From positions 1 through 21,439 of the IMG/VR virus record IMGVR_UViG_3300017739_000141: a DNA stretch of 21,439 nt; one strand, written 5' to 3'. Below the pieces are notes generated by a model that did not search any database, had not been told where the DNA came from, and saw nothing but the letters and a program-made list of their open reading frames with translations. Source of the stretch: a virus. The translations under genes were made by a program, and so were the position numbers. Positions 1-19,712 of this stretch are shown here, piece after piece (the first letter of the stretch is position 1; every line of letters begins with the position of its first letter).

Positions 1-3
1 TAG

Positions 4-204
4 CACTTCCGATCGGTAAGGAAGATAGGAATCACTACAGGTGGTCGAGTTAATTTATATAGTAAAATGTTAAGAAAGGAAAAAGAAGTATTAATTAAAG
101 ATATTAAAAAAAAGTTACTTTATATAACAAATAATTCAACAGAAGCAGATATTTTATTTGACATAGTAAATTTATTAAAAAATATAAAACCTATATCAAG
201 ATGA
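4..204 (+). CDS. 5'-incomplete small protein, partial paralogue of the gene at 334-549
   Basis: The frame is open from just after a TAG at 1-3 to the TGA at 202-204. It has no ATG, GTG or TTG before the ATG at 67, which would give a 45-residue product. Upstream of that ATG the reading frame encodes ITTGGRVNLYSKM, which closely matches ITTGDRVNFYCKM in the next-but-one gene; the DNA at 31-69 matches 376-414 with 3 mismatches in 39. The homologous reading therefore extends upstream of the only start codon. Either the gene begins outside the window and its 5' end is damaged or mis-assembled, or it is a decaying duplicate. The part after the ATG is lysine-rich (KDIKKKLLYI) and has no recognisable domain. 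The stop overlaps the next start as ATGA. Function unknown. Confidence 0.45.
   Translation, partial: HFRSVRKIGITTGGRVNLYSKMLRKEKEVLIKDIKKKLLYITNNSTEADILFDIVNLLKNIKPISR
31..69 (+). repeat. 39-bp direct repeat, copy 1 (copy 2 at 376-414)
   Basis: Both copies begin ATCACTACAGGTG and end GTAAAATG. Only 3 of 39 positions differ, and both are read in the same frame, giving ITTGxRVNxYxKM. This is a recent partial gene duplication within the small-gene train. Confidence 0.8.
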
Positions 205-347
205 AAAGTAAAGAAGAAATAGCACTACTTTGGATAGTAGTAGGTTTAGTAGCAATTCCAATTTGTATACTTTATCCACCAGTAGTTTTAGTTGGAATAT
301 TTATGTACGCAGCAATTAGCTTATATAAACATTATGCCAATGGATGA
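201..347 (+). CDS. Small two-pass membrane protein (48 aa)
   Basis: The ATG overlaps the upstream TGA (ATGA), which indicates translational coupling. A short charged N-terminus (MKSKEE) is followed by hydrophobic segments at about residues 7-25 and 28-43. A Pro-Pro pair at 26-27 separates them, consistent with a helical hairpin in the inner membrane. The C-terminus is short and basic (KHYANG). No family is recognised. Small phage membrane proteins of this shape include holin-like and superinfection-exclusion proteins, but nothing here distinguishes between those roles. Confidence 0.6.
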   Translation: MKSKEEIALLWIVVGLVAIPICILYPPVVLVGIFMYAAISLYKHYANG

Positions 348-549
348 AATAATTAGAGATTCAAATGGAGGTAAAATCACTACAGGTGATCGAGTTAATT
401 TTTATTGTAAAATGGATAGTATGGTGAAAGAAGGTTTAATTACTAAAGTAACAGGTGGTACATTTGGTATTAAATGTTCAAAATATATTACGCTTTACAA
501 ATATAAGGAAGTAGATAAGCATATGATATCAAAAATAAATAAAAAATAA
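334..549 (+). CDS. Small basic protein of unknown function, possible SH3-like fold (71 aa)
   Basis: I start it at ATG 334 (a second ATG is at 340). The frame is open further upstream from a TTG at 292, but that extension lies wholly inside the preceding membrane-protein gene and is unlikely to be used. The protein reads MPMDEIIRDSNGGKITTGDRVN and then FYCKMDSMVKEGLI. The GD-RV strand followed by alternating hydrophobic residues and glycine turns resembles a small beta-barrel such as SH3 or KOW; this is a shape impression only. A truncated paralogue lies at the left edge of the window. It overlaps the upstream gene by 14 nt. Confidence 0.6.
   Translation: MPMDEIIRDSNGGKITTGDRVNFYCKMDSMVKEGLITKVTGGTFGIKCSKYITLYKYKEVDKHMISKINKK
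376..414 (+). repeat. 39-bp direct repeat, copy 2 (copy 1 at 31-69)
   Basis: This is the partner of the repeat at 31-69 and lies inside the 71-aa gene, coding ITTGDRVNFYCKM. Confidence 0.8.
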
Positions 550-553
550 CGTG

Positions 554-598
554 ATGGGTGACAAAAAGGTTATTATATTAAATCAAAAAAACAAATGA
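554..598 (+). CDS. Possible 14-aa leader peptide
   Basis: ATG GGT GAC AAA AAG continues to a TGA that overlaps the next ATG (ATGA at 595-598). The product would be MGDKKVIILNQKNK. It may serve only to couple translation to the next gene. The case rests on the overlap alone and may be chance. Confidence 0.25.
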   Translation: MGDKKVIILNQKNK

Positions 599-732
599 AA
601 GAATTTATTTATCATGCATTAGGAATTTGTGGTGAGCATTCACATCCTCATTTATTAAATGTAGGCTACATTTTATTAGCTACATTTATATTATATAAAA
701 TTGTTAAATTAAAATCAAGGTTAAATGGGTAA
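595..732 (+). CDS. Small single-pass membrane protein with a CGEHSHPH motif (45 aa)
   Basis: The N-terminal third contains C12-G-E-H-S-H-P-H19, a cluster of Cys, Glu and three His residues that could bind a metal. A hydrophobic helix follows at about residues 23-37, then a basic tail (KLKSRLNG). Short proteins with a GxCGExH-type motif next to one membrane helix are, from memory, seen in many marine phage genomes, where they are hypothetical. The gene is 3' of a possible 14-aa leader (ATGA overlap), and its last 8 nt overlap the next gene in another frame. Confidence 0.6.
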   Translation: MKEFIYHALGICGEHSHPHLLNVGYILLATFILYKIVKLKSRLNG

Positions 733-898
733 TAATAGTATAAGACAAACAGTTGCAACAATGTCGGCTTGGAGGAGCGATTTGAAACATATTAAGGAAG
801 CAAAGGCGAAAGCAGATGAGCGAAAAAGGAGAAAGCAAAAGCGATCAAATATAGAGAAGCAAAAATCAAAAAGCTCTTTTAACAATAATAAATATTAA
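725..898 (+). CDS. Small, highly basic helical protein (57 aa)
   Basis: The ATG lies 8 nt inside the upstream gene. After a short N-terminus (MGNNSIRQTVATMSAW) the middle is an almost continuous charged helix with a dense Lys/Arg block at about residues 21-47 (for example ADERKRRKQKR). By hand I count 17 Lys/Arg against 5 Asp/Glu, so the net charge is about +12. Such a peptide would be expected to bind nucleic acid or an acidic protein. The next gene encodes a strongly acidic protein. No family is recognised. Confidence 0.6.
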   Translation: MGNNSIRQTVATMSAWRSDLKHIKEAKAKADERKRRKQKRSNIEKQKSKSSFNNNKY

Positions 899-917
899 CC
901 TACGTATATACAGAATC

Positions 918-1352
918 ATGGAAATTACAATTGAAAGAATAAAAAGTATAGTGCACCAGTATTGGGGTAATGATTATGAAGATGCAGTCTCAGATACAAA
1001 TTTTGATGGTATGGATTATCAGTGTTATTCAGAGTCTACTGCCGATGGGTATGAGGTTTATGTTTTGAAAGATACCAAGGAGGCAATGGATATTCAGGAG
1101 CATATTCATTATTATGATTCGGATTTGGCAGATGATTTATTTGAGGTGTTGTTGGAAGGTAAAACTGTTTTTATGGATCATTATTTGTGGGATGATATCT
1201 ATATGGATGATCAGTATGAGGAGTATTGGGTTGATCAAATGACTAATACAGATGAATTGGATGATATGTTTGAGGAAACAGATATGACAGAGGAGGAATT
1301 TAAGTATTTAAAGTCAGAGTATCATGACGAGGAAGAAGCAGCAGCAGAGTAA
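918..1352 (+). CDS. Very acidic 144-aa protein of unknown function
   Basis: It is a complete frame from ATG 918 to TAA 1352. By hand I count 45 Asp/Glu and only 7 Lys/Arg in 144 residues, a net charge near -38. Acidic residues are spread throughout and are densest near the C-terminus (DELDDMFEETDMTEEEF and DEEEAAAE). Aromatic residues (Tyr, Trp) are also frequent. Size, charge and folded-looking aromatic content resemble DNA-mimic anti-restriction proteins as a class, but no family motif is visible, so that role is a hypothesis. The coding strand is unusually G-rich compared with the virion genes. It lies 19 nt after a very basic small gene, and its 3' end overlaps another basic gene by 29 nt. 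Confidence 0.75.
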   Translation: MEITIERIKSIVHQYWGNDYEDAVSDTNFDGMDYQCYSESTADGYEVYVLKDTKEAMDIQEHIHYYDSDLADDLFEVLLEGKTVFMDHYLWDDIYMDDQYEEYWVDQMTNTDELDDMFEETDMTEEEFKYLKSEYHDEEEAAAE

Positions 1353-1446
1353 TTGGTGGGCATTTTGGGATAATATTAATATGCCCTTGTTAAAAAAAAT
1401 TAGACGTGTTAAACGTAAAAAACCTAGTGTGTGGGATTTAAAATAA
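1324..1446 (+). CDS. Small basic, Trp-rich protein overlapping the acidic gene (40 aa)
   Basis: The ATG at 1324 is in a different frame and lies 29 nt inside the 3' end of the acidic gene. The product begins MTRKKQQQSNWWAFWDN and continues with a Lys/Arg block (LLKKIRRVKRKK). It has about 12 basic against 2 acidic residues and four Trp. The Trp-containing stretch next to basic residues is amphipathic, so it could bind membrane or nucleic acid. Its last 16 nt overlap the next gene, which starts at a GTG. Function unknown; possibly a partner of the acidic protein. Confidence 0.55.
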   Translation: MTRKKQQQSNWWAFWDNINMPLLKKIRRVKRKKPSVWDLK

Positions 1447-1589
1447 TTCAATTATTACTTTCAGCGTTTATAATATCTTTATTTTTAGGTATTGGATGGA
1501 ATGTGGTGAGAGGATTTATTGATGGGTTTATGGATGCTAGGAATGGAAATGATTATAATAATAAAATAAATAACGATGAAAACAAATAA
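1431..1589 (+). CDS. Small single-pass membrane protein with a GTG start (52 aa)
   Basis: GTG at 1431 is the only usable start after an in-frame TAG at 1425-1427, and it gives MGFKIIQLLLSAFIISLF. One membrane helix spans about residues 5-22, followed by a short amphipathic segment (NVVRGFIDGFMDARNG) and an Asn/Asp-rich polar tail. Both ends overlap neighbouring genes (16 nt upstream, 14 nt downstream), which suggests coupled translation. No family is recognised. Confidence 0.55.
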   Translation: MGFKIIQLLLSAFIISLFLGIGWNVVRGFIDGFMDARNGNDYNNKINNDENK

Positions 1590-1827
1590 TATACTAATGA
1601 TATTAATTATACTTTCGTTTGCTGGGGCAACGTGGTTGATAACTGAAAATCATGCTTTAAAACATAGGGAAATTGATATGTTGGATAAATGGTTTAACAT
1701 GGAGGAAGATTTGAGTGATATGCAAGTGGAAATATTTGATATGAAAACTCAGATGAATAGAATTGAGTCGTTGATTGATGAGATGGCGGTTGATTATTCT
1801 GATACTAATACTGTAAATTATAATTAA
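1576..1827 (+). CDS. N-terminally anchored membrane protein with coiled coil (83 aa)
   Basis: A short basic start (MKTNN) is followed by a hydrophobic helix at about residues 6-22. Residues 30-72 then have heptad-like spacing of Leu/Met/Ile (MLDKWFNMEEDLSDMQVEIF), suggesting a coiled coil, and the tail is polar. The layout, a short cytoplasmic N-terminus with one helix and an extended coil, is that of inner-membrane spanins (Rz), but it is also shared by many unrelated small phage proteins. It is directly followed by a second protein of the same layout whose ATG abuts this stop codon. Confidence 0.65.
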   Translation: MKTNNILMILIILSFAGATWLITENHALKHREIDMLDKWFNMEEDLSDMQVEIFDMKTQMNRIESLIDEMAVDYSDTNTVNYN

Positions 1828-2103
1828 ATGGGGGAAGTTATTAAAAATTTAGGTTGGTATTTGATTGTATTTGTTGTTATATTATCTATTGTAGCTGGGG
1901 TTGTTGGAAAAAATAAAGCGCTAAATCAATTGTTAGATGAGTGTAAAGATAAGGACGCTACACATATTGATTTGATACTTGATTTGGAACATGAAAATGC
2001 TAGATTAACTGATTATATTCATAATATTGAAGCGGAAAACGCTATATTAAGTTCATGTTGTGCTAATGGTGGTTTACAACCTGATACTGTTATATTAGAT
2101 TAG
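1828..2103 (+). CDS. N-terminally anchored membrane protein with coiled coil and Cys-Cys (91 aa)
   Basis: The ATG follows the upstream TAA without a gap. The membrane helix is at about residues 9-27 and is followed by a predicted coiled coil (about 30-75, with HENARLTDYIHNIEAENAIL as the clearest part). A Cys-Cys pair at 77-78 and one Cys at 39 could form intermolecular disulphides if the coil is periplasmic. It shares its architecture with the preceding protein, so the two may be a heteromeric pair or ancient duplicates, although I see no clear residue identity. A spanin-like role is possible but unproven, and no lysis enzyme is nearby. Confidence 0.65.
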   Translation: MGEVIKNLGWYLIVFVVILSIVAGVVGKNKALNQLLDECKDKDATHIDLILDLEHENARLTDYIHNIEAENAILSSCCANGGLQPDTVILD

Positions 2104-2108
2104 AAATT

Positions 2109-2192
2109 ATGAGTATAGAATGGAGTTTAATAACGTTGATTGTTGTAGGATGCTTTTTGGTTCTATGTTTAGCACCTATATTTAATGACTAA
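2109..2192 (+). CDS. Membrane micropeptide (27 aa)
   Basis: MSIEWS is followed by a single hydrophobic helix (about residues 6-23, LITLIVVGCFLVLCLAP) and FND. It starts 5 nt after the upstream stop, and its last 8 nt overlap the next gene. Position within a train of abutting genes and a clean membrane helix are the only support. Confidence 0.45.
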   Translation: MSIEWSLITLIVVGCFLVLCLAPIFND

Positions 2193-2343
2193 GTATAAAA
2201 TTACTACTTTATTTAATGATGAATTTGTTACTACCTACACGGGTAAAGATTTATACTGTGCTGTCTTGGATAAGTTTAATATAGAATATGTTGTAAGTGT
2301 GGAAAACGATCCTAATGGGTTACAAACAACACTTGATTTATAA
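2185..2343 (+). CDS. Small soluble protein of unknown function (52 aa)
   Basis: The ATG overlaps the upstream micropeptide by 8 nt. The sequence (MTKYKITTLFNDEFVTTYTG, then KDLYCAVLDKFNIEYVVSVEND) looks like a small alpha/beta fold with two strands, a helix and further strands. No motif is recognised. It is the last gene of the left-hand train before the long non-coding region. Confidence 0.5.
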   Translation: MTKYKITTLFNDEFVTTYTGKDLYCAVLDKFNIEYVVSVENDPNGLQTTLDL

Positions 2344-2448
2344 TAGTATGTTACAAACTATAGTAGTGTTATGTGAGATAAAATGCAACCAATGTTAACC
2401 TTCATTGCCAGCATCCAACCCTTTTTTAACTTACCTTAAAAATATATA

Positions 2449-2467
2449 TGAACAATTAGGTTGTTCA
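2449..2467. repeat. Perfect inverted repeat TGAACAA-N5-TTGTTCA
   Basis: It has 7-bp perfect arms around TTAGG. The right arm overlaps the first TGTTCACGA decamer, so TGTTCA boxes appear once inverted and twice direct. This is the form expected of an operator for a dimeric regulator. Confidence 0.75.
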
Positions 2468-2491
2468 CGAATGTTCACGACTATTCATAAC
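2462..2491 (+). repeat. Tandem decamer repeats (iteron- or operator-like)
   Basis: TGTTCACGAA (2462-2471) and TGTTCACGAC (2472-2481) are followed by a degenerate TATTCATAAC (2482-2491). The 10-bp period places the boxes on one face of the DNA helix. The array ends 16 bp before the -33 element of the promoter at 2508, a position suited to an activator, a repressor or an initiator protein. Confidence 0.65.
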
Positions 2492-2500
2492 GAAGTGCGC

Positions 2501-2528
2501 GGGAGGGTGTGGATGGGTGAGGGAGGGG
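2501..2528 (+). other. Putative G-quadruplex motif
   Basis: There are five G-tracts of three or more (2501-2503, 2505-2507, 2515-2517, 2521-2523, 2525-2528) with loops of 1, 7, 3 and 1 nt. This meets the usual G3+N1-7 pattern. It is on the non-template strand and overlaps the -33 element and spacer of the promoter at 2508-2544. Such a motif stands out in so AT-rich a genome. Confidence 0.7.
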
Positions 2529-2544
2529 TCGTATATTTACACCA
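2508..2544 (+). promoter_or_regulatory. Putative promoter P1 (TGTGGA / TATATT)
   Basis: TGTGGA at 2508-2513, then 15 nt, then TCG-TATATT at 2529-2537 and TACACCA. Two other sites in the window share the same elements at identical spacing. The layout fits the Bacteroidota -33/-7 promoter, here with G for T in the -33 box. The start of transcription would be near 2543. No credible coding sequence follows for more than 500 nt. Confidence 0.55.
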
Positions 2545-2580
2545 TATGATAATTGGATAACATATTAATAATAGCTGGCC

Positions 2581-2594
2581 CAGTACTTATACTG
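2581..2594 (+). repeat. Hairpin CAGTA-CTTA-TACTG
   Basis: Perfect 5-bp stem with a 4-nt loop. It is the first of a series of short hairpins downstream of P1. Confidence 0.4.
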
Positions 2595-2611
2595 CGTGCA
2601 TAAATAAGGCG

Positions 2612-2645
2612 CAACGTACCCTCTACATAGGTAGGGGACTCGTTG
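2612..2645 (+). ncRNA. Two-tier stem-loop, possible structured RNA element
   Basis: An outer stem CAACG (2612-2616) / CGTTG (2641-2645) encloses a 3x3 internal loop and an inner 7-bp stem, CCTCTAC (2620-2626) / GTAGGGG (2631-2637) with one G-U pair, capped by ATAG. Two stems in register are less likely by chance than isolated palindromes, and the element lies in the predicted untranslated transcript from P1. It matches no RNA family I know. Confidence 0.4.
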
Positions 2646-2728
2646 TCGGTACCTTATTATACATTACCATTTACCCACATAGTATTCTACCACGGCATAT
2701 CCCTTAGTATATTATATTGTATTACCTT

Positions 2729-2741
2729 AGCATTATATGCT
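2729..2741 (+). repeat. Hairpin AGCAT-TAT-ATGCT
   Basis: Perfect 5-bp stem with a 3-nt TAT loop. It has the same size and loop as the hairpin at 2771-2783. Confidence 0.4.
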
Positions 2742-2760
2742 GCATATGTTGGTTGTGTGG

Positions 2761-2783
2761 CGTACGTACGGCGTATATTACGC
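2761..2783 (+). repeat. Palindrome CGTACGTACG followed by hairpin GCGTA-TAT-TACGC
   Basis: A perfect 10-bp palindrome (2761-2770) directly precedes a perfect 5-bp stem with a TAT loop (2771-2783). An overlapping alternative pairing GCATA (2782-2786) / TATGC (2797-2801) also exists. Confidence 0.45.
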
Positions 2784-2960
2784 ATAGATACCCATGTATG
2801 CTGATGTCCATATACGCGTGGATACCGCACAAAAAAAAGTAAATATGTGCTTAACTCGAACTTACCCTTTTACTATCGAAATGGTATATACAAATATCCT
2901 ACACGCTAAAGTCCATTTAACCCCAAAGAACCAAAATCCGAGAGTTTCAAAATCTTCTCC

Positions 2961-2984
2961 GTCGACGGATTCTTCATCGTCGAC
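2961..2984 (+). repeat. Hairpin GTCGACG-N10-CGTCGAC
   Basis: This is a perfect GC-rich 7-bp stem, strong for this genome. The next T-run (3015-3020) is about 30 nt downstream, so it is not a typical intrinsic terminator, although it could mark the 3' part of a P1 transcript. Confidence 0.5.
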
Positions 2985-3039
2985 AAGATATATATTTATA
3001 CTGGAATAATAATGTTTTTTATCTTCCCCCACATAAAAA

Positions 3040-3076
3040 TTTGGATTCCCAAGAAAGGGTTCGTATATTCACATCA
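3040..3076 (+). promoter_or_regulatory. Putative promoter P2 (TTTGGA / TATATT)
   Basis: TTTGGA (3040-3045), 15 nt, TCG-TATATTC (3061-3070), then ACATCA. It has the spacing and core of P1 and P3. The predicted start near 3075 leaves a leader of only about 13 nt before the ATG at 3088, so it should drive the small-gene cluster that follows. Confidence 0.65.
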
Positions 3077-3087
3077 AAATTAAGGTT

Positions 3088-6378: not shown

Positions 6379-6659
6379 TAGAAATAGTATTAATATCTTC
6401 CCTATCAGTATTAGTGGTAATCTTAGGATTTACCACTTTTAATTTAATGCGTAAAAATGAAAAACAAGAAGACATTTTAGCAGAGTATCTTACTTATTTA
6501 GATAGATTATCTAAAACAATAGATGCATCTGATAAAAAACTCAAAGAAATAGATCGAGCCGGTACATTTAAATCTGATGATGAGGTTGGACAATTTTTTA
6601 ATTCCATCCAAAAGATTCAAGATATCTTAAATGATTTTAAGTTAAAAGAAATAAAATGA
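6375..6659 (+). CDS. Membrane-anchored coiled-coil protein with DDEVG motif (94 aa)
   Basis: The N-terminal membrane helix is at about residues 3-24 (VLISSLSVLVVILGFTTFNL), followed by a cytoplasmic-looking coiled coil (residues 28-65) and a C-terminal segment FKSDDEVGQFFNSIQKIQDI. I recall the same arrangement, one helix, a coil and a DDEVG-x-FF segment, from hypothetical proteins of many marine T4-like phages. Function unknown. It overlaps both neighbours by 4 nt and so is co-translated with the HD enzyme and the sigma factor. Confidence 0.7.
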   Translation: MIEIVLISSLSVLVVILGFTTFNLMRKNEKQEDILAEYLTYLDRLSKTIDASDKKLKEIDRAGTFKSDDEVGQFFNSIQKIQDILNDFKLKEIK

Positions 6660-7390
6660 TTACCGTGGCTAGAAAAAGAAGACCCAAGAGTAAAAACTAC
6701 TTTACTAAAGATACTGAATATGCTATTGTTAGATATAATAATGAACCAGATCCAGAAATCAGAAGTAAAATATATAGAGATGAAATACATTATGCTTTTT
6801 TTAAATTAACAGAAAATATAATTCATACCTTTAAATTTTATTACACAGAAGTAGATCAAATAGAACACCTACAACATGAAGTAATAACATTTTTACTTTC
6901 TAAATTACATCTATTCAATCCAGATAATGGAGCAAAAGCATATTCTTATTTTGGTACTATAACTAAAAACTGGTTAATAGTATATAATACAAAAAATTAT
7001 AAAAAACGTGTTCAAAAAGCACCTGTGGATGAATTATTTAAAGATGATAATTATTCATATCAAATGGGTGAAGAAAAAGAAAAAGAAAAATTAGGTATTT
7101 TTATAGATGCGTATGTAAAATATGTTGAAAATAGATTTGACATATTTTTTCCTAAAGGTAATGATGCTAAAGTAGCTGATGCTATATTAGAATTATTCCG
7201 TAAAAGAGAAAATTTAGAAATATTTAATAAAAAGGCATTATACATCTATATTAGAGAAATAATGGCTACACATGGTTTAGAAGTTAAAACACCCAAAATA
7301 ACTAAAATAGCAAATAAATTATATGGGTTATTTAAAAATAACTATGTTTATTACTTAGAAACTGGATATATAGATTTTGAAAAACCTTAA
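6656..7390 (+). CDS. Late sigma factor, T4 gp55-like (244 aa)
   Basis: Residues about 28-110 have the look of sigma-70 region 2: helices with EIRSKIYRDEIHYAFFKLTE, a hydrophobic stretch (TFKFYYTEVDQIEHLQHEVI), then LHLFNPDNGAKAYSYFGTIT before KNWLI. This matches the FDP-x-xG-x-x-x-x-x-YF-x-x-I block of sigma factors and of gp55 proteins that direct late transcription in T4-like phages. T4 gp55 is 185 aa, so this one is longer, with a charged insert around 120-150 (EEKEKEKLG) and a lysine-rich N-terminus. No regions 3 or 4 are visible, as in gp55. It lies immediately before the virion genes, fitting a switch to late expression. A host-type ECF sigma factor is the alternative. Confidence 0.7.
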   Translation: MITVARKRRPKSKNYFTKDTEYAIVRYNNEPDPEIRSKIYRDEIHYAFFKLTENIIHTFKFYYTEVDQIEHLQHEVITFLLSKLHLFNPDNGAKAYSYFGTITKNWLIVYNTKNYKKRVQKAPVDELFKDDNYSYQMGEEKEKEKLGIFIDAYVKYVENRFDIFFPKGNDAKVADAILELFRKRENLEIFNKKALYIYIREIMATHGLEVKTPKITKIANKLYGLFKNNYVYYLETGYIDFEKP

Positions 7391-9066: not shown

Positions 9067-10820
9067 TGGCTCAAGTAAAGATTATAGGTAGAGTAGTAGA
9101 AAGTATAAATGAAAGTGAAGGAGTTCCTTTTGTAAATTGTAAAATTACCCCAAACCCAGGTACAGTAGGTTTTGCTACAGGAGTTAATGGTAATATTGAT
9201 GCCTCTATCAATTTAGATTTTTCTACTACTTATAGTTTTGAATTTTCTTCTATAGGGTATACATCTAAAATTATACAAAAACAGGTTTCATCCCCTACAT
9301 TAGATTTAGGAACTATAAAATTAAGTGAATCTAATACAGTTTTAAATGAATTTGAAATAGTAGCAGAACCTACTACATATGAATTTCGAGGAATTGTTTT
9401 AGATGAAACAACTAACCAACCCATATCAGAAGCTGATATTATCCCCCCTTCCCCAGCTAACAAAGTAAAATCTCAAATTGATGGATCTTTTTTAATTAAT
9501 TTAGATCTTAATTCTTTTACTGAAAGTGTAGTAGAAACAACCCCCAATAAAGATGATATTCAAATTTATACTGTAGTAGAAGGAGATACTTTATATAAAA
9601 TAGCAAGAAAATTCCCAATAGATAAAATTGGGTTAGCTAGTAGGGTAAATGAAATATATGAAGCTAATTTATCCCTTTTACAAGGAAGATCTACAGTAAA
9701 TACCCAAGGAAATATTTTAGCAAATGAAGATTTAATATTTCCTGGCGATAAATTAAACATTGCAGGTTATTATAATTCATCACAAACAAATTTTAAAAAT
9801 TTTAACTTTATAATTACAGCTAAAGATTATAATCAAAAAACAATTCCGGCAACAAGAGGAAATCAAACTCTTATTGATAATTTAGGAAGAATTCTTCTTA
9901 CCCCTATTAAAAAAGATGTAGATCAAGAAATTGTAAAACAAAACCTTTTAACTAAAGATCAAGAAAAAATAATAAAAGAAGATACTAAAAAAGATTTTAT
10001 ATCTTCTGTTCTTAAAAAATTATTAAAAATTATAAATGACAAATTAATTCCTTTATTAATATCAAAAATAGCGGCTTTTGGTGTTACTAAATTAAATGAA
10101 GAGCTATTAAACAATATAGATAAAATACCAAAAACATGTCCTCCTACTATAAAAGCTTTAAATGATATTATTGATGCAAAAAATAAATTAACAAAACAAT
10201 TAAATAATTTTTATAGTAGTATAAATTTAATAAATAAATTTTTACAAATACCCGTTATTGCAATTGATAGTGCTTCAATTTTATCCAGAGGAGCTAAAAT
10301 TTATGTTAACGTTGCATCTTTTATCCCATCAACAGCTGTAACTCCATTACCTGTAGGGCCTATTTTAATAGCTAAAGATTTAATAAGAAATTTAGAAGAT
10401 AAAATTGGTTTTTTAAAAAATAAAAATAAATCCGGGGGTACACAATTAAGATTCATAATAAGTAAACTTAATCAGGTTATACAATTATTAAATATTTTAG
10501 ATATATTAATAGGAGAGTGTGCTGAAGAACTAGGAACTACCTTAAGTGAACAAGAACAAATATCTCAAGAATTATTAAAATCTACTCAAGAACAATCACA
10601 ACAATTATCACCTGTAGTTACAAATGTAAATGGGTTTGATATGGGTGTTGTAACTATAGATAATGTAACTATTGGGGGGCTAAAAAGAAGAAGAGCAATT
10701 GCTAAAAACCCCCAAGGGGTAATTATGCTCCAAGGAGAACCTTCATTTTCTTCAAATGATCAAATATTAATAGATGAATTAGTATTTTATATACAACAAA
10801 ATAATTTAAAAGCAGATTAA
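9066..10820 (+). CDS. Baseplate protein with two carboxypeptidase-regulatory-like domains and LysM (584 aa)
   Basis: Residues 4-85 (IIGRVVESINESEGVPFVNC, then the GVNGNI and FSSIGY blocks) and 105-155 (FRGIVLDETTNQPISEADII, then DGSFLI) follow the beta-sandwich pattern GxVxDxxTxxPIxxAxI of CarboxypepD_reg-like domains. Residues 167-232 form a LysM domain (YTVVEGDTLYKIARKF through FPGDKLNI). The remainder (about 285-500) is long helices with hydrophobic stretches (LLKIINDKLIPLLISKIAAF), and a C-terminal beta part ends at QILIDELVFYIQQN. LysM occurs in T4 gp53 and in hub proteins of many contractile tails, so this is probably a hub or inner-wedge component. The regulatory-like domains are unusual for a baseplate. 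It is encoded directly after the spike. Confidence 0.75.
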   Translation: MAQVKIIGRVVESINESEGVPFVNCKITPNPGTVGFATGVNGNIDASINLDFSTTYSFEFSSIGYTSKIIQKQVSSPTLDLGTIKLSESNTVLNEFEIVAEPTTYEFRGIVLDETTNQPISEADIIPPSPANKVKSQIDGSFLINLDLNSFTESVVETTPNKDDIQIYTVVEGDTLYKIARKFPIDKIGLASRVNEIYEANLSLLQGRSTVNTQGNILANEDLIFPGDKLNIAGYYNSSQTNFKNFNFIITAKDYNQKTIPATRGNQTLIDNLGRILLTPIKKDVDQEIVKQNLLTKDQEKIIKEDTKKDFISSVLKKLLKIINDKLIPLLISKIAAFGVTKLNEELLNNIDKIPKTCPPTIKALNDIIDAKNKLTKQLNNFYSSINLINKFLQIPVIAIDSASILSRGAKIYVNVASFIPSTAVTPLPVGPILIAKDLIRNLEDKIGFLKNKNKSGGTQLRFIISKLNQVIQLLNILDILIGECAEELGTTLSEQEQISQELLKSTQEQSQQLSPVVTNVNGFDMGVVTIDNVTIGGLKRRRAIAKNPQGVIMLQGEPSFSSNDQILIDELVFYIQQNNLKAD

Positions 10821-10824
10821 TTTA

Positions 10825-10833
10825 ATATTTATA
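10825..10833 (+). promoter_or_regulatory. Possible late-promoter box ATATTTATA
   Basis: Identical to the 9-mer at 7397, in the 25-nt gap before the gene at 10846. Gaps are rare in this module, which makes the placement notable, but the box is pure A/T. Confidence 0.3.
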
Positions 10834-10845
10834 ACAAACACAAAC

Positions 10846-11217
10846 ATGAAAACTGAAGCACTTAAAAGAATAATAAAAGAAGCTGTTAGAGAGGCTATAC
10901 AAGAAGAGCTAAAGGAAGTTTTACTAGAAGCAGTTAAAGCACCTAAAGCTGTAGTTACACAACCAATACAAGAAAGTATCACATCAACTACACCTGCACC
11001 TGTTACTCAAACACCTAAAAAATCTTTAAAAGAACAAAGACAGAAATACATGGATATTATAGGTGAAACAGGATTAAATATGAATAGTACACATGCTCCT
11101 GGATTTGGTAATAAACCATTTAATCCTACAGGTAATATAGATACTACCTCAGCAAATGGAAGTTTACCTGCGGGAGAAGTTAATATGGATCAAATAATGG
11201 GATTAATGACTAAATAA
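10846..11217 (+). CDS. Small virion-module protein with amphipathic N-terminal helix (123 aa)
   Basis: Residues 1-32 form a charged amphipathic helix (LKRIIKEAVREAIQEELKEV). A Thr/Pro-rich linker follows (residues 38-58), then a short basic helix (SLKEQRQKYMDIIGETG) and a Gly/Asn-rich tail ending in MDQIMGLMTK. This is the layout of an assembly or linker protein. From memory, marine T4-like phages have similar small proteins among their virion genes. Function unknown. Its stop overlaps the gp25 start (TAATG). Confidence 0.65.
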   Translation: MKTEALKRIIKEAVREAIQEELKEVLLEAVKAPKAVVTQPIQESITSTTPAPVTQTPKKSLKEQRQKYMDIIGETGLNMNSTHAPGFGNKPFNPTGNIDTTSANGSLPAGEVNMDQIMGLMTK

Positions 11218-11624
11218 TGGTATTTGAAGCACAACAAATATTTCCAATAGACTTTAATAAAAGTGCTGCTGTAGGAGTAGATATACCTTTTTCTTCACCT
11301 GGGGTATTCAAACCTAATTATACTACAAAAGAAGCTACTAAAAATAACTTAATCAATTATTTTTTAACCAATCCAGGAGAAAGACCATTAAACCCCACTT
11401 TTGGGGGAGGGTTAAGAGCTTTTATTTTTGAGCAAATTACTACGGACAATTTAGATTTTTTAGAAGAAGAAATATCAAATAATTTAAATTTATTTTTTCC
11501 AAACATTAATATAGATGATTTAAATATATTACAAAAAGAGGATAATAATACTATTAATGTATCTTTAAATTATAGTATTATAAATACTAATATAAATGAT
11601 ACTCTAGAAATAGACTTTGCATAA
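11217..11624 (+). CDS. 25: Baseplate wedge subunit gp25 (135 aa)
   Basis: Residues 43-72 carry the GPW/gp25 family signature: NNLINYFLTNPGERPLNPTF followed by GGGLRAFIFE. The family includes T4 gp25 and type VI secretion TssE. The length is typical (T4 gp25 is 132 aa). The protein joins the inner wedge to the first sheath ring and helps trigger sheath assembly. It directly precedes gp6, the neighbour expected in contractile-tail modules, and overlaps it by 1 nt. Confidence 0.93.
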   Translation: MVFEAQQIFPIDFNKSAAVGVDIPFSSPGVFKPNYTTKEATKNNLINYFLTNPGERPLNPTFGGGLRAFIFEQITTDNLDFLEEEISNNLNLFFPNINIDDLNILQKEDNNTINVSLNYSIINTNINDTLEIDFA

Positions 11625-13483
11625 TGGCTACACCAATAAAAAGAGACATAAAATACTTAAATAGGGATTTTTCAGATATAAGAACTCAGTTAATAGAGTT
11701 TTCTCAAACATATTTTCCTAACACATATAATGATTTTTCTCCTACATCACCAGGTATGATGTTTATGGAGCAAGCAGCTTATGTAGGTGATATAATGTCT
11801 TTTTATTTAGATAATCAGCTACAAGAAACATTTACTACTTTAGCTAGACAAACAAATAATTTATATGAGTTAGCTTATATGTTTGGTTATAAACCTAAAA
11901 CTACTACTGCAGCTCAAACTGAAATAGAATTATTTCAACAAGTTCCTTCAAAAAAAGTAGGTGGGAATTTTGTTCCTGATTATGATTATACTTTAACTAT
12001 AGGAGAAAATACTGTAGTAAATTCTCAAACAGATTCTACTATATCTTTTTTAATTCAGGATAAATGTGATTTTTCATTTTCAAGTTCTTTAGATCCTACT
12101 GAGATTTCTGTTTATAGTATAGCTGGCCAAATTCCACAATATTTTTTACTTAAAAAAACAAGAAAAGCAATTTCTGCAACTTTAAATACTCAAACATTTT
12201 CATTTACATCCCCAGAACAATTTTCAACAGTTAATTTAACAGGAGAAAATATAATAAAAGTATTAGATATTGTAGATTCTGATGGTAACACTTGGTCTGA
12301 AGTTGATTATCTAGGTCAAGAAATGGTATTTGATAGTATTAAAAATACTAATATAAATGATCCTAATAACGTAGCAGATGCAGGTGAAGTACCTTACTTA
12401 TTACAACTTAAAAAAGTTCAAACACGTTTTGCTACAAGATGCATCTCAGAAAATAACCTACAAATACAATTTGGAGCCGGTAACCCAAATGATACAGATG
12501 AATTAATAACACCTAACCCAAACAATGTAGGTATAGGTTTACCATTTGAACAGGATAAACTTACAACGGCATTTTCACCTACAAACTTTTTATTTACAAA
12601 TACTTATGGTATAGCACCTTCTAATACTACCTTAACAGTAAGATATTTAACAGGAGGTGGTGTTGGAGCTAATGTTTCATCTGATGATTTAACTTCTTTA
12701 AATACCTCTAATGTTCAATTTAACAATTCTACTTTAGATCCTAATTTAGCTAATTATGTATTTGCATCTATAGTAGCTAATAACCCTCAGGCTGCAGATG
12801 GGGGTAAAGCAGGAGATACACCTGAAGAAATTAGACAAAATACTTTAATGCAAATAGCTGCTCAACAAAGAACAGTTACTTTAGATGATTATATGGTTAG
12901 AGCATTAAGTATGCCTTCTGATTTTGGAAATATTTCTAAATTATATCTTGAAAAACCCACACTAGACAATCAAACCTCTACAGTTGAAACTTTATGTATG
13001 TATGTTTTATCACAAAACAGTTTAGGTCAATTATCAATACCAACAGAAGCTTTAAAGAAAAATTTAAGAACATATCTATCGCAGTATAAAATGATAGGTG
13101 ATAGTATTGAAATAAAAAATGCTTATATTATTAATATAGCTATTGATTTTGAAATAGTAGTTTTACCTAATTTTATAAATAGTCAAGTAATATTATCTTG
13201 TATTTCTTCCCTACAATCTTATTTTAATAAAGATAAATGGCAAATTAACCAGCCTATTTTATTAAAAGATTTATTTATAATGTTAGATAAAATAAAAGGT
13301 GTTCAAACTGTAAAAAATATTAAAATAACAAATAAAAGAGGAACAACTCAGGGATATTCTCAATATGCTTATGATATAGAAGGGGCAACCCAAAACCAAG
13401 TAATTTATCCTAGTTTAGATCCTTCAATATTTGAAATTAAATATCCTAATAATGATATAAAAGGTAGAGTAGTACCTTTATAA
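11624..13483 (+). CDS. 6: Baseplate wedge subunit gp6 / baseplate J-like (619 aa)
   Basis: The N-terminus (YLNRDFSDIRTQLIEFSQTY, then SPTSPGMMFMEQAAYVGDIM and SFYLDNQLQETF) is the typical gp6 start, with the SPG-x-x-x-x-E motif. The central part is beta-rich. Residues about 405-446 contain the baseplate-J block (AAQQRTVTLDDYMVRALSMP, then SDFGNI). The C-terminal part matches the wedge-dimerisation region in position and predicted fold (VQTVKNIKITNKRG). Length is close to T4 gp6 (660 aa). It forms the iris ring that holds the baseplate wedges together around the hub. Confidence 0.9.
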   Translation: MATPIKRDIKYLNRDFSDIRTQLIEFSQTYFPNTYNDFSPTSPGMMFMEQAAYVGDIMSFYLDNQLQETFTTLARQTNNLYELAYMFGYKPKTTTAAQTEIELFQQVPSKKVGGNFVPDYDYTLTIGENTVVNSQTDSTISFLIQDKCDFSFSSSLDPTEISVYSIAGQIPQYFLLKKTRKAISATLNTQTFSFTSPEQFSTVNLTGENIIKVLDIVDSDGNTWSEVDYLGQEMVFDSIKNTNINDPNNVADAGEVPYLLQLKKVQTRFATRCISENNLQIQFGAGNPNDTDELITPNPNNVGIGLPFEQDKLTTAFSPTNFLFTNTYGIAPSNTTLTVRYLTGGGVGANVSSDDLTSLNTSNVQFNNSTLDPNLANYVFASIVANNPQAADGGKAGDTPEEIRQNTLMQIAAQQRTVTLDDYMVRALSMPSDFGNISKLYLEKPTLDNQTSTVETLCMYVLSQNSLGQLSIPTEALKKNLRTYLSQYKMIGDSIEIKNAYIINIAIDFEIVVLPNFINSQVILSCISSLQSYFNKDKWQINQPILLKDLFIMLDKIKGVQTVKNIKITNKRGTTQGYSQYAYDIEGATQNQVIYPSLDPSIFEIKYPNNDIKGRVVPL

Positions 13484-18300: not shown

Positions 18301-19434
18301 AATGATTTAAGTAAAGAATACTTTAAAAAATATATTAAACAATATGATCTAGTAGATTTTGTTAGACTAATAAAATTTTTTGATAATTCATTATTTAAAA
18401 TGATTAAGGATTTTATTCCTGCAAGAACAAGCTTAGCATCAGGTTTAGTAGTAAAACAACATTTATTAGAAAGAAATAAATACCCTCAACCTCAAGTAAA
18501 TAAAGAAGAAATATTATTAACGGGTTCTATTCAATCTAAACAGATATGGGTTGAATCAATGTCGGGATCTATAATGTCTTCATCTTTAATAGAAAGCTTT
18601 AATGGTGGAGCAGCAGGTATGTTTAATCCTTTTAATATTAATTATAATTTAAATGCTACTAGTTCTATTGAAACTACAACATTTAATTTTTCAGCTAATG
18701 TTCAGGCTATTACACCCCCAGATGAAGATGGTACAACTATAAGTTTTGGAAGTGGTGTTGTTTCAACAACAGCTCCAAGTTTAGAATATTTTGAAAGATT
18801 TATAAGTGCTTCATATGATGGAAATCCAAATCTTTGGATGGATTTATCAGGTGAAGAAATTCAAATTTTAAATCCTTTTAATTCAGGTTCGGGAACAAAT
18901 AATGCTAGGAGAGCTCGAGTTGCTAATATAGATTTATTATTAAATAATTTAACTTTAGCTAGTGGTTATACTGTAAGTTCTCAGGGAGCAGGAGCATACC
19001 AATTTACTTTTTATACAGCATCAGTAGGAGCATCTACAAATTTCCAATCTTCATCTCAAGCTCTAGTCACTCAAGAAGACTATTATTATGACACTACTCC
19101 TCAATTTAATGTTACACAAAGTTATACAATTACTACACCTTCATTAAATGGACCCGTAACTAGAACACATAGATCGCAAGATGAATTTTATAATGGTGAA
19201 TTAAGTGGCTCTACTTTAGTAGTATCTAATGGGGAATTAAATGAAGATTGCGCACAATTTAAATTTATTAATCCTAGAGGTGGTAATTATGGAATAAGAT
19301 CGTATAATTCAACTGATGATAATTTTAATGATTTTATTAATACACAAAACTTACCTTTACAAGGATTTATACAAACATGGTTTCAAGATGATGCTACCAG
19401 TGGTCCTTTACCAGCACCAAATCCAAGTGGGTAA
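15361..19434 (+). CDS. Giant baseplate/tail protein, gp7-like with Tail_I-like and LamG-like parts (1357 aa)
   Basis: Residues 1-400 are beta-rich. Residues about 411-485 (NELKKSIPEYLREDPANQQY, then the DLFVDMVAQYYDNVWLYT block) and 545-585 (IYHNIPYLLKSKGTLTGLRA, then LITSYGIPD) resemble phage tail protein I / wedge initiator proteins, where a KGT-x-x-x-L-x-x-L block follows a helical repeat. Residues about 616-812 look like a LamG/concanavalin-type sandwich (DWWSVMVTADQTGNYSLFSG and GFSGSLQEIRYYTTQISESV), which in phages often binds glycans. The C-terminus has the EFYNGELSGSTLVVSNGELN block that I recall from other marine phage structural proteins. It is longer than T4 gp7 (1032 aa). Likely an outer wedge protein that also contacts receptor-binding parts. 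Confidence 0.7.
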   Translation: MAEIIKIDPTTFELQSYKGSDTSLVSQFPISKNFNNSSYIEFFIYDLNKNLLDFNLNYNKYKVFNDGAASPENNTISNFNISPGSDITQKGYTQGQYIAFYNFLQKQIGDPTRNLYITEISSDKTEIRLDSNILSNFDIIDQTNNFIQFRENQNYFVDFYLNFGNNNLVIANNIKLENKETDNPTILIKLYKPLPFNFNIKSELWIVTTLNEPEAFQVTYPIESIPFNDFTQISGPNFSIPVKNEVNNSSQNLSYNDIIMGASTGSQNQIDSLLSQSAINISVDYNNFFDFINFSSAQTRIENFYYKVGLIESYTSQSNNLLEVTGSSTSQVIFQNKISNVITNFDKFEYFMYYSSGSAISYPKSNLEPPYTLLPTTSSQVLTWLGSIDESNSNFGGQLLSASNFDNANPNELKKSIPEYLREDPANQQYDLFVDMVAQYYDNVWLYTKDITQKYNADNRLDFGVSKDLVADAIRDFGVKLYQNNFSNKELYTAFLGLTPNGSLFPFPEITGSLPAPTGFEFVDTLISASNDVISMDDTNKSLYKRIYHNIPYLLKSKGTLTGLRALITSYGIPDTILRISEFGGKDQVNANDYDLYFNNFNYALGVGPNTNFVSSSWQIDSAWVGEDGRPSTVQLRFKSEEFPPTSLSQSLWQVQGSGLTGELLLDYSGSGLISESYAGSIPSSSYQYANLRFIPQNDAPNISASISLPFYNGDWWSVMVTADQTGNYSLFSGNKIYNGNDGTSIGYYSSSSITGGGIEAWNEGTTSTFASASLNYSQYKGFSGSLQEIRYYTTQISESVFKDYVMNPLSIEGNGINSAPDQLIFRADLGSELDTTPPNISIHPKVTGSWAITSSFRNFNNNFYLSNTRAYPLGTYETNIETFFLDQPAVGIKNRITDKIRSESDTLPSGSVLSPIRRLSQTTEASASYTDNINYLEVAFSPQNQINDDIISQMGHFNIGDYIGDPRQRSSSAQIYPDLNDLSKEYFKKYIKQYDLVDFVRLIKFFDNSLFKMIKDFIPARTSLASGLVVKQHLLERNKYPQPQVNKEEILLTGSIQSKQIWVESMSGSIMSSSLIESFNGGAAGMFNPFNINYNLNATSSIETTTFNFSANVQAITPPDEDGTTISFGSGVVSTTAPSLEYFERFISASYDGNPNLWMDLSGEEIQILNPFNSGSGTNNARRARVANIDLLLNNLTLASGYTVSSQGAGAYQFTFYTASVGASTNFQSSSQALVTQEDYYYDTTPQFNVTQSYTITTPSLNGPVTRTHRSQDEFYNGELSGSTLVVSNGELNEDCAQFKFINPRGGNYGIRSYNSTDDNFNDFINTQNLPLQGFIQTWFQDDATSGPLPAPNPSG

Positions 19435-19435
19435 A

Positions 19436-19444
19436 ATATTTATA
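19436..19444 (+). promoter_or_regulatory. Third ATATTTATA box (weak)
   Basis: Identical to the boxes at 7397 and 10825, but it ends only 4 nt before the ATG at 19449. If it acted as a -10 element, transcription would start at or after that ATG. It is listed for completeness. Confidence 0.15.
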
Positions 19445-19448
19445 TAAA

Positions 19449-19712
19449 ATGGCAGGAAGTATACAATATATTAAAGTAGCAAGAATAGATGGAAATGGTA
19501 ATGATTTAACAAATACATTAGAATCATTATCTAATATTACTCTACCTTCAGGATCAAGTTCTAATACCTATGTTATTAATAATAGAACTAGGACTAATGA
19601 TTACTATTTATATTATGTTACAGCACCTAATAGATTAGATATAGCTGAGGAAGATAAACACTCACCTAATTATAATATAGTAGGAACAGTTACAAATTTT
19701 AAATTCCCATAA
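19449..19712 (+). CDS. Small virion-module protein (87 aa)
   Basis: It is beta-rich: IQYIKVARIDGNGNDLTNTL, SNTYVINNRTRTNDYYLYYV and a C-terminal strand ending NFKFP. There is no known motif. Between two very large structural proteins and 3 nt before the next start, it is probably a minor virion part or a folding partner of one of them. Confidence 0.65.
   Translation: MAGSIQYIKVARIDGNGNDLTNTLESLSNITLPSGSSSNTYVINNRTRTNDYYLYYVTAPNRLDIAEEDKHSPNYNIVGTVTNFKFP

What the first reader, a model, noticed from the sequence alone, without database searches (positions are those of the whole stretch)
2449..3030. Repeats, G4 motif and a promoter leading into folded, apparently non-coding DNA: candidate regulatory RNA or R-loop replication origin
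Seen: operator-like repeats, five G-tracts and a promoter are followed by about 500 nt with no credible gene but at least five short perfect hairpins, in a segment GC-richer than the structural genes. Known: T4 origins such as oriF/ori(uvsY) use a middle-type promoter whose transcript stays in an R-loop and primes replication, and a G-rich non-template strand favours R-loops. Inference: this locus is either such an origin or a promoter for a phage regulatory RNA. I recognise no described RNA or origin here.
Basis: partly seen in the sequence, partly recalled or inferred. Interest (0 to 1): 0.78.

Follow-up and report, generated by a model that had tools for sequence, protein, structure and literature searches.

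The report
Phage iteron element, probably replication origin
A non-coding stretch of this marine phage carries a short DNA array, three repeats exactly one helix turn apart next to a conserved core, that is kept in the same genome neighbourhood of many related phages, including a cultured Flavobacterium phage, and looks most like a start site for copying the phage DNA.

Summary
The non-coding segment is real and conserved. Homologues of its core occur in about 30 phage contigs, once per record where scanned, and in no bacterial genome or catalogued phage searched. The 2794-3009 frame is not coding. The G-tracts are not a transcribed G4: they sit in the spacer of an early-type promoter (TTTGG-N17-CGTATATTYA; P1 2508-2539), and ordinary sequence replaces them in relatives. 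A short hairpin (2581-2594) covaries in 11 of 11 close homologues, so a structured 5' part exists in this clade. The deeper conserved feature is DNA-like: three 11-bp direct repeats (2758-2790), a core (CCCAYGYRYGCTGATGTCCAT, 2791-2811) and a GTATATAC box at a fixed 101-104 bp. Lag-11 periodicity has z = 13.7. A second clade, including cultured Flavobacterium phage immuto (about 74.14-74.30 kb), has a different repeat sequence with the same 11-bp period (z = 20), followed by an A/T box about 75 bp downstream, at the corresponding place. In immuto a terminator lies directly before the repeats. This is the architecture of an iteron origin, closest to the iteron-bearing T4 oriE. R-loop priming and a trans-acting RNA are less supported. 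No replication data exist; a transcription-control array remains possible.

The parts
2450..2491 (+). Inverted repeat GAACAA/TTGTTC (2450-2466) and three 10-bp direct repeats (2462-2491) upstream of P1: operator-like array
   Evidence: repeats kept in L035, L149, L174 and partly in L045, L201
2501..2528 (+). Five G-tracts, in and just upstream of the P1 spacer; not conserved as a G4
   Evidence: relatives compared
2508..2539 (+). P1, early-type phage promoter TGTGG-N17-CGTATATTTA
   Evidence: census (125 hits, all N17, null 0); direct repeat with P2
2581..2594 (+). Hairpin H1 (CAGTA/TACTG), covarying
   Evidence: own arms pair 100%, arms swapped between homologues 65%, 11 homologues
2612..2645 (+). 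Hairpin P2h (2620-2626/2631-2637) enclosed by CAACG/CGTTG
   Evidence: 7 pairs kept in 10 of 10, with C-G to U-A in L045/L201
2758..2790 (.). Three 11-bp iterons TGGCGTACGTA, CGGCGTATATT, ACGCATAGATA
   Evidence: lag-11 z = 13.7, confined to this stretch
2791..2811 (.). Conserved core CCCATGTATGCTGATGTCCAT, one copy per record
2875..2899 (.). Box 1, ATCGA-n4-GTATATAC-n2-ATATCC, at fixed distance from the core
   Evidence: 101-104 bp (trimmed sequences) in 29 of 30 homologues
2976..3001 (.). Box 2, degenerate second copy (ATCGTCGACAAGATATATATTTATAC), A+T-rich
2794..3009 (+). 71-codon open frame; rejected as a gene
   Evidence: no Pfam match
3040..3071 (+). P2, early-type promoter TTTGG-N17-CGTATATTCA for the 3088 and 3258 genes

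Best explanation
2758-2899 (at most about 2450-3010) is a single-copy, iteron-type DNA element, most likely a replication origin of a T4-like phage of Bacteroidetes. Shown: non-coding; conserved; one copy per record; three 11-bp repeats one helix turn apart; a fixed-length core ending in a GTATATAC/A+T box; the same layout with different repeat sequences in other clades at the corresponding genome position. Inferred: a phage-encoded initiator binds the repeats side by side on one face of the DNA, strains the adjacent A+T box open at fixed distance, and the phage helicase/primase load there. In this clade transcription from early promoter P1 through structured RNA may help opening or priming, as has been suggested for T4 oriE.
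For: 11-bp period: z = 13.7 over 27 homologues, still 0.42 against 0.25 +/- 0.03 with 7 sequence clusters, confined to the array. Independent clade: lag-11 z = 20.2 over 27 loci, A/T run starting 74-79 bp after TTCCCT in most; immuto array at 74146 is the strongest lag-11 site of its 160-kb genome. Three repeat families (GCGTAYRTA, YGATAGCG, TGATRTCA) with the same period suggest co-change with a binding protein. Fixed 101-104 bp from core to box. One copy per record including 170 and 128 kb contigs. Intrinsic terminator just before the immuto array, so it acts as DNA there. RecA-family gene next to it in L205. T4 oriE has evenly spaced 12-nt repeats and an early promoter (PMC3016281) and lies in the baseplate gene region.
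Against: No replication data. GC skew falls from about +0.4 to about 0 across the element in this clade, which is not the minus-to-plus switch of a bidirectional origin and may only mark the early/late gene boundary. The A/T box alone is near chance frequency in these AT-rich genomes. No initiator was identified. Repeats are imperfect and weak in some homologues (L193, L138, L244). P1 is not universal.
Confidence: 0.5

Rival explanations
1. A transcription-control array: a phage regulator binds the 11-bp repeats and controls a promoter at the A+T box, switching the early/late boundary region.
For: The immuto-clade A/T box often contains ATATTTATA, resembling the late promoters seen before structural genes; genes follow closely in L136, L159, L213; the element lies at the early/late boundary.
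Against: The array-to-box distance (74-103 bp) is long for an operator; the GTATATAC and ATATGTATA/ATACATATA variants do not fit the late motif; the motif is single copy; the next gene differs between phages.
Confidence: 0.22
2. A centromere-like, packaging or recombination site: a protein assembles on the repeats to segregate, package or resolve phage DNA.
For: Helically phased direct repeats are also typical of ParR-type centromeres (general knowledge); single copy; context-independent.
Against: No partition gene was seen beside it (not searched for systematically); a lytic T4-like phage has no known need for partition; in immuto it lies about 45 kb from the terminase gene.
Confidence: 0.12
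3. A phage non-coding RNA of roughly 450 nt made from P1, acting in trans or on the downstream genes.
For: Promoter P1 directly before covarying hairpins; conserved unpaired GCGTGCATAAATAAGG.
Against: No Rfam match; overall fold not better than shuffles; no consensus fold in the deepest-conserved part; 5' domain absent from most clades; terminator before the array in immuto; 11-bp phasing.
Confidence: 0.12
4. A T4 oriF-like R-loop origin driven by the G-rich P1 region.
For: Promoter followed by non-coding DNA with an A+T-rich end.
Against: G-tracts are upstream of the transcript and not conserved; the promoter is early-type; P1 is not visible in L211/L212 and a terminator precedes the array in immuto.
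Confidence: 0.04

Closest known systems
Phage T4 oriE (with repEA/repEB)
   Same: T4-like phage; evenly spaced short direct repeats; early-type promoter nearby; baseplate gene region (PMC3016281)
   Different: T4 repeats are 12 nt and oriE lies within gene 5; here 11 bp, contiguous, non-coding, with a conserved core and A/T box at fixed distance; no sequence relation seen; role of the T4 iterons unproven
Iteron plasmid origins (RK2 oriV, R6K gamma)
   Same: Direct repeats beside an A+T-rich unwinding element (PMC4980987)
   Different: 11 bp instead of the longer plasmid iterons; no Rep gene identified; no DnaA box sought or shown
PLE satellite origin of Vibrio cholerae (RepA iterons)
   Same: Non-coding iteron origin used during a lytic phage infection; different repeat sequences between variants that co-vary with the initiator (PMC8263062)
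   Different: PLE iterons are about 30-bp semi-palindromes; satellite, not the phage itself
Phage T4 oriF / ori(uvsY)
   Same: Promoter followed by non-coding A+T-rich DNA
   Different: oriF needs a MotA middle promoter and an R-loop; neither is indicated here

Membership tests
Iteron-type replication origin | Array of evenly spaced direct repeats | tested here: met
   Lag-11 z = 13.7 and 20.2; 7-cluster test p < 1/5000
Iteron-type replication origin | A+T-rich unwinding region at fixed distance from the repeats | tested here: met
   101-104 bp core-to-box in 29 of 30; A/T run at 74-79 bp in most of 27; box alone is not rare
Iteron-type replication origin | Cognate initiator protein | not tested
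   No candidate gene identified
Iteron-type replication origin | Drives initiation of DNA synthesis | not testable with these tools
   Needs infection sequencing or plasmid assay
T4 oriE | Evenly spaced 12-nt repeats | tested here: not met
   Repeats are 11 bp and unrelated in sequence; resemblance is of layout
T4 oriE | Early-mode promoter feeding the origin | tested here: inconclusive
   P1 present in the window clade; not visible in L211/L212; terminator before the array in immuto
T4 oriF/oriG R-loop origin | Middle-mode (MotA) promoter | tested here: not met
   P1 matches the common early-type promoter used before many genes
T4 oriF/oriG R-loop origin | Persistent R-loop in the unwinding element | not testable with these tools
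   Needs S9.6/DRIP or nuclease mapping
Known structured RNA families (Rfam 15) | Match to a covariance model | tested here: not met
Protein-coding gene (2794-3009) | Open frame kept with codon-position constraint | tested here: not met
   Variable columns 15/8/14 and 12/11/11 by codon position; stops and lost starts in relatives
ParR/parC-type centromere | 11-bp repeats beside a parM/parR operon | tested here: inconclusive
   Repeat length fits; neighbouring frames were listed but only a few were given family searches, and none matched a partition protein

The most novel reading that the evidence does not exclude
A whole group of T4-like phages of Bacteroidetes replicates from one dedicated, initiator-driven iteron origin whose repeat sequence switches between lineages while its 11-bp phasing, core and unwinding box stay fixed, unlike the several transcription-primed origins of T4.
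Probability: 0.4. Interest if true: 0.8.

Novelty: new variant of a known kind. Interest (0 to 1): 0.7.

Why it matters
What the iterons at T4 oriE do has been open for decades. A single, positionally conserved iteron element in many environmental T4-like phages, and in a cultured one (Flavobacterium phage immuto, about 74.14-74.30 kb), makes the question directly testable. It also gives a marker for finding candidate origins in uncultured phage genomes, and it predicts a lineage-specific initiator that should co-vary with the repeat sequence.

Tried and rejected
Coding frame 2794-3009: rejected. Rfam families: none. G4/R-loop: G-tracts are in the promoter spacer and not conserved. GC-skew switch as an origin mark: wrong direction, and no inversion at the element in the 170-kb contig. 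RNA fold of the core: RNAalifold gives 0.0. GTATATAC as the general late promoter: rejected; late genes carry ATATTTATA-type boxes and CGA-n-TATATAC is mostly confined to this element. Microcystis phage Mel-JY01 and LR756508: no 11-bp array found in the region taken. T4 oriE as a positive control for the lag scan: no strong lag-12 peak, perhaps because its repeats are not contiguous, so it did not serve as a control. Strict-pattern and A/T-box copy-number scans in the immuto clade were uninformative. No core pattern match in 84,980 bacterial/archaeal genomes or in catalogued phages.

Full report
What the window is. A 21.4-kb fragment of an uncultured virus record, with baseplate wedge homologues at 11217-13483 (PHROGs) and a protein at 6656-7390 whose catalogued relatives are mainly Flavobacterium phages immuto (46% identity; also an uncultured phage and Microcystis phage Mel-JY01). 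That protein reads to me like a late sigma factor, but it has no Pfam, PHROG or convincing PDB match, so I use it only as an anchor gene. The host is therefore probably a member of Bacteroidetes (inference).

Checking the observation. The 10-bp repeats, five G-tracts, promoter, gene-free stretch and raised GC are all there. The promoter is solid: TTTGG-N17-CGTATATTYA occurs 125 times in related loci, always with N17 although 17-20 was allowed, 119 times just before an ATG, and never in shuffled sequence. P1 (2508-2539) has one mismatch to it, P2 (3040-3071) none. The G-tracts therefore lie within and just upstream of the P1 spacer and are not transcribed from P1. In L033, L067 and L080 ordinary sequence takes their place. 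Overall folding is not exceptional (z = -1.25).

Conservation. Blast of 2344-3087 against related loci found homologues at about 65-87% identity, and pattern scans enlarged the set to about 30. The core occurs once in each record in which it was found, including 170- and 128-kb contigs. It was not found in bacterial genomes or catalogued phages.

Not a gene. The 71-codon frame has a stop in L035 and L201, no start in L033 and L201, a frameshift in L045, and no third-position bias (variable columns 15/8/14 and 12/11/11).

A structured 5' part. Hairpin H1 (2581-2594) pairs perfectly in 11 of 11 homologues although its letters change; arms swapped between homologues pair only 65%. The next hairpin keeps seven pairs in 10 of 10, with a C-G to U-A double change in L045/L201. 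This supports a nucleic-acid structure in the 5' domain, but that domain exists only in this clade. In L033, L045, L067 and L080 one or two small genes lie between the P1-like promoter and the element.

The deeper signal is DNA-like. RNAalifold finds no consensus fold in the core. Instead, the distance from core to GTATATAC box is constant (101-104 bp in 29 of 30 homologues), and the 33 bp before the core are three 11-bp repeats. Autocorrelation at lag 11 is 0.436 against 0.242 expected (z = 13.7), while lags 10 and 12 are not raised. The signal is confined to this array and holds when homologues are reduced to seven clusters (0.42 against 0.25 +/- 0.03). In L139, L159 and L191 the repeat is a different sequence (YGATAGCG) with the same period. 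One later-found homologue (L244) keeps the fixed length but has only weak periodicity (0.31).

Independent confirmation. In Flavobacterium phage immuto the strongest lag-11 site of the whole genome is at 74146 (23 of 33; reached by 2 of 50 Markov genomes), in the corresponding place upstream of a T5orf172 gene and the anchor gene. Relatives of immuto share there an array of TGATRTCA-type 11-bp repeats, lag-11 z = 20.2 over 27 loci, followed by TTCCCT and, in most of them 74-79 bp on, an A/T run. A terminator (GAGGCTTAGGCCTC plus a T-run) stands directly before the immuto array and a similar one before several relatives, so the element there is not read from upstream.

Mechanism. Phased repeats, a fixed spacer and an A/T box in single-copy non-coding DNA are the layout of iteron origins, where an initiator binds repeats and melts a neighbouring unwinding element (PMC4980987). 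T4 oriE also has evenly spaced repeats, 12 nt, and an early promoter, with their role unproven (PMC3016281). I therefore favour an iteron-type origin at 0.5. The binding, melting and loading steps are inferred, not shown. Against it: GC skew drops from about +0.4 to about 0 at the element in this clade, which fits a gene-class boundary rather than a bidirectional origin; A/T boxes are common in these genomes; and no initiator is known. A transcription-control array is the main rival (0.22).

Verdict. Real, conserved and probably functional as DNA.

Noticed in passing
L238 (NC_055915) 24265-24420, record 74265-74420: Annotated immuto gp127 overlaps the A/T box of the element and is probably not a gene.
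   Followed up: partly
window 10820-10846, 19434-19449; immuto tail sheath and tube genes: Late genes are preceded by ATATTTATA-type boxes, a likely late promoter of the group that reads like the complement of the T4 TATAAATA box.
   Followed up: partly
related loci, 125 sites: Early-type promoter TTTGG-N17-CGTATATTYA with strictly invariant spacing, usable for annotating this phage group.
   Followed up: yes
L210 4947-5009 (-): Near-threshold match to freshwater-1 RNA (68.3 bits, gathering 72) inside a large phage tRNA cluster.
   Followed up: no
L210 3885-3960 (-): tRNA-like gene with a four-base anticodon (aaat) reported by ARAGORN.
   Followed up: no
L206, L215, L217, within about 200 nt upstream of the iterons: tRNA-like sequences that differ between the three phages and look degenerate, directly before the element.
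   Followed up: no
window 1-2400 against 2400 onward: GC skew falls from about +0.4 to about 0 at the element although all genes point the same way; seen in close relatives too.
   Followed up: partly
L033 about 2388-2430, L043 about 175-220: Hairpin H1 carries an inserted loop of about 30 nt with its own TAAC/GTTA arms in these two homologues only.
   Followed up: no
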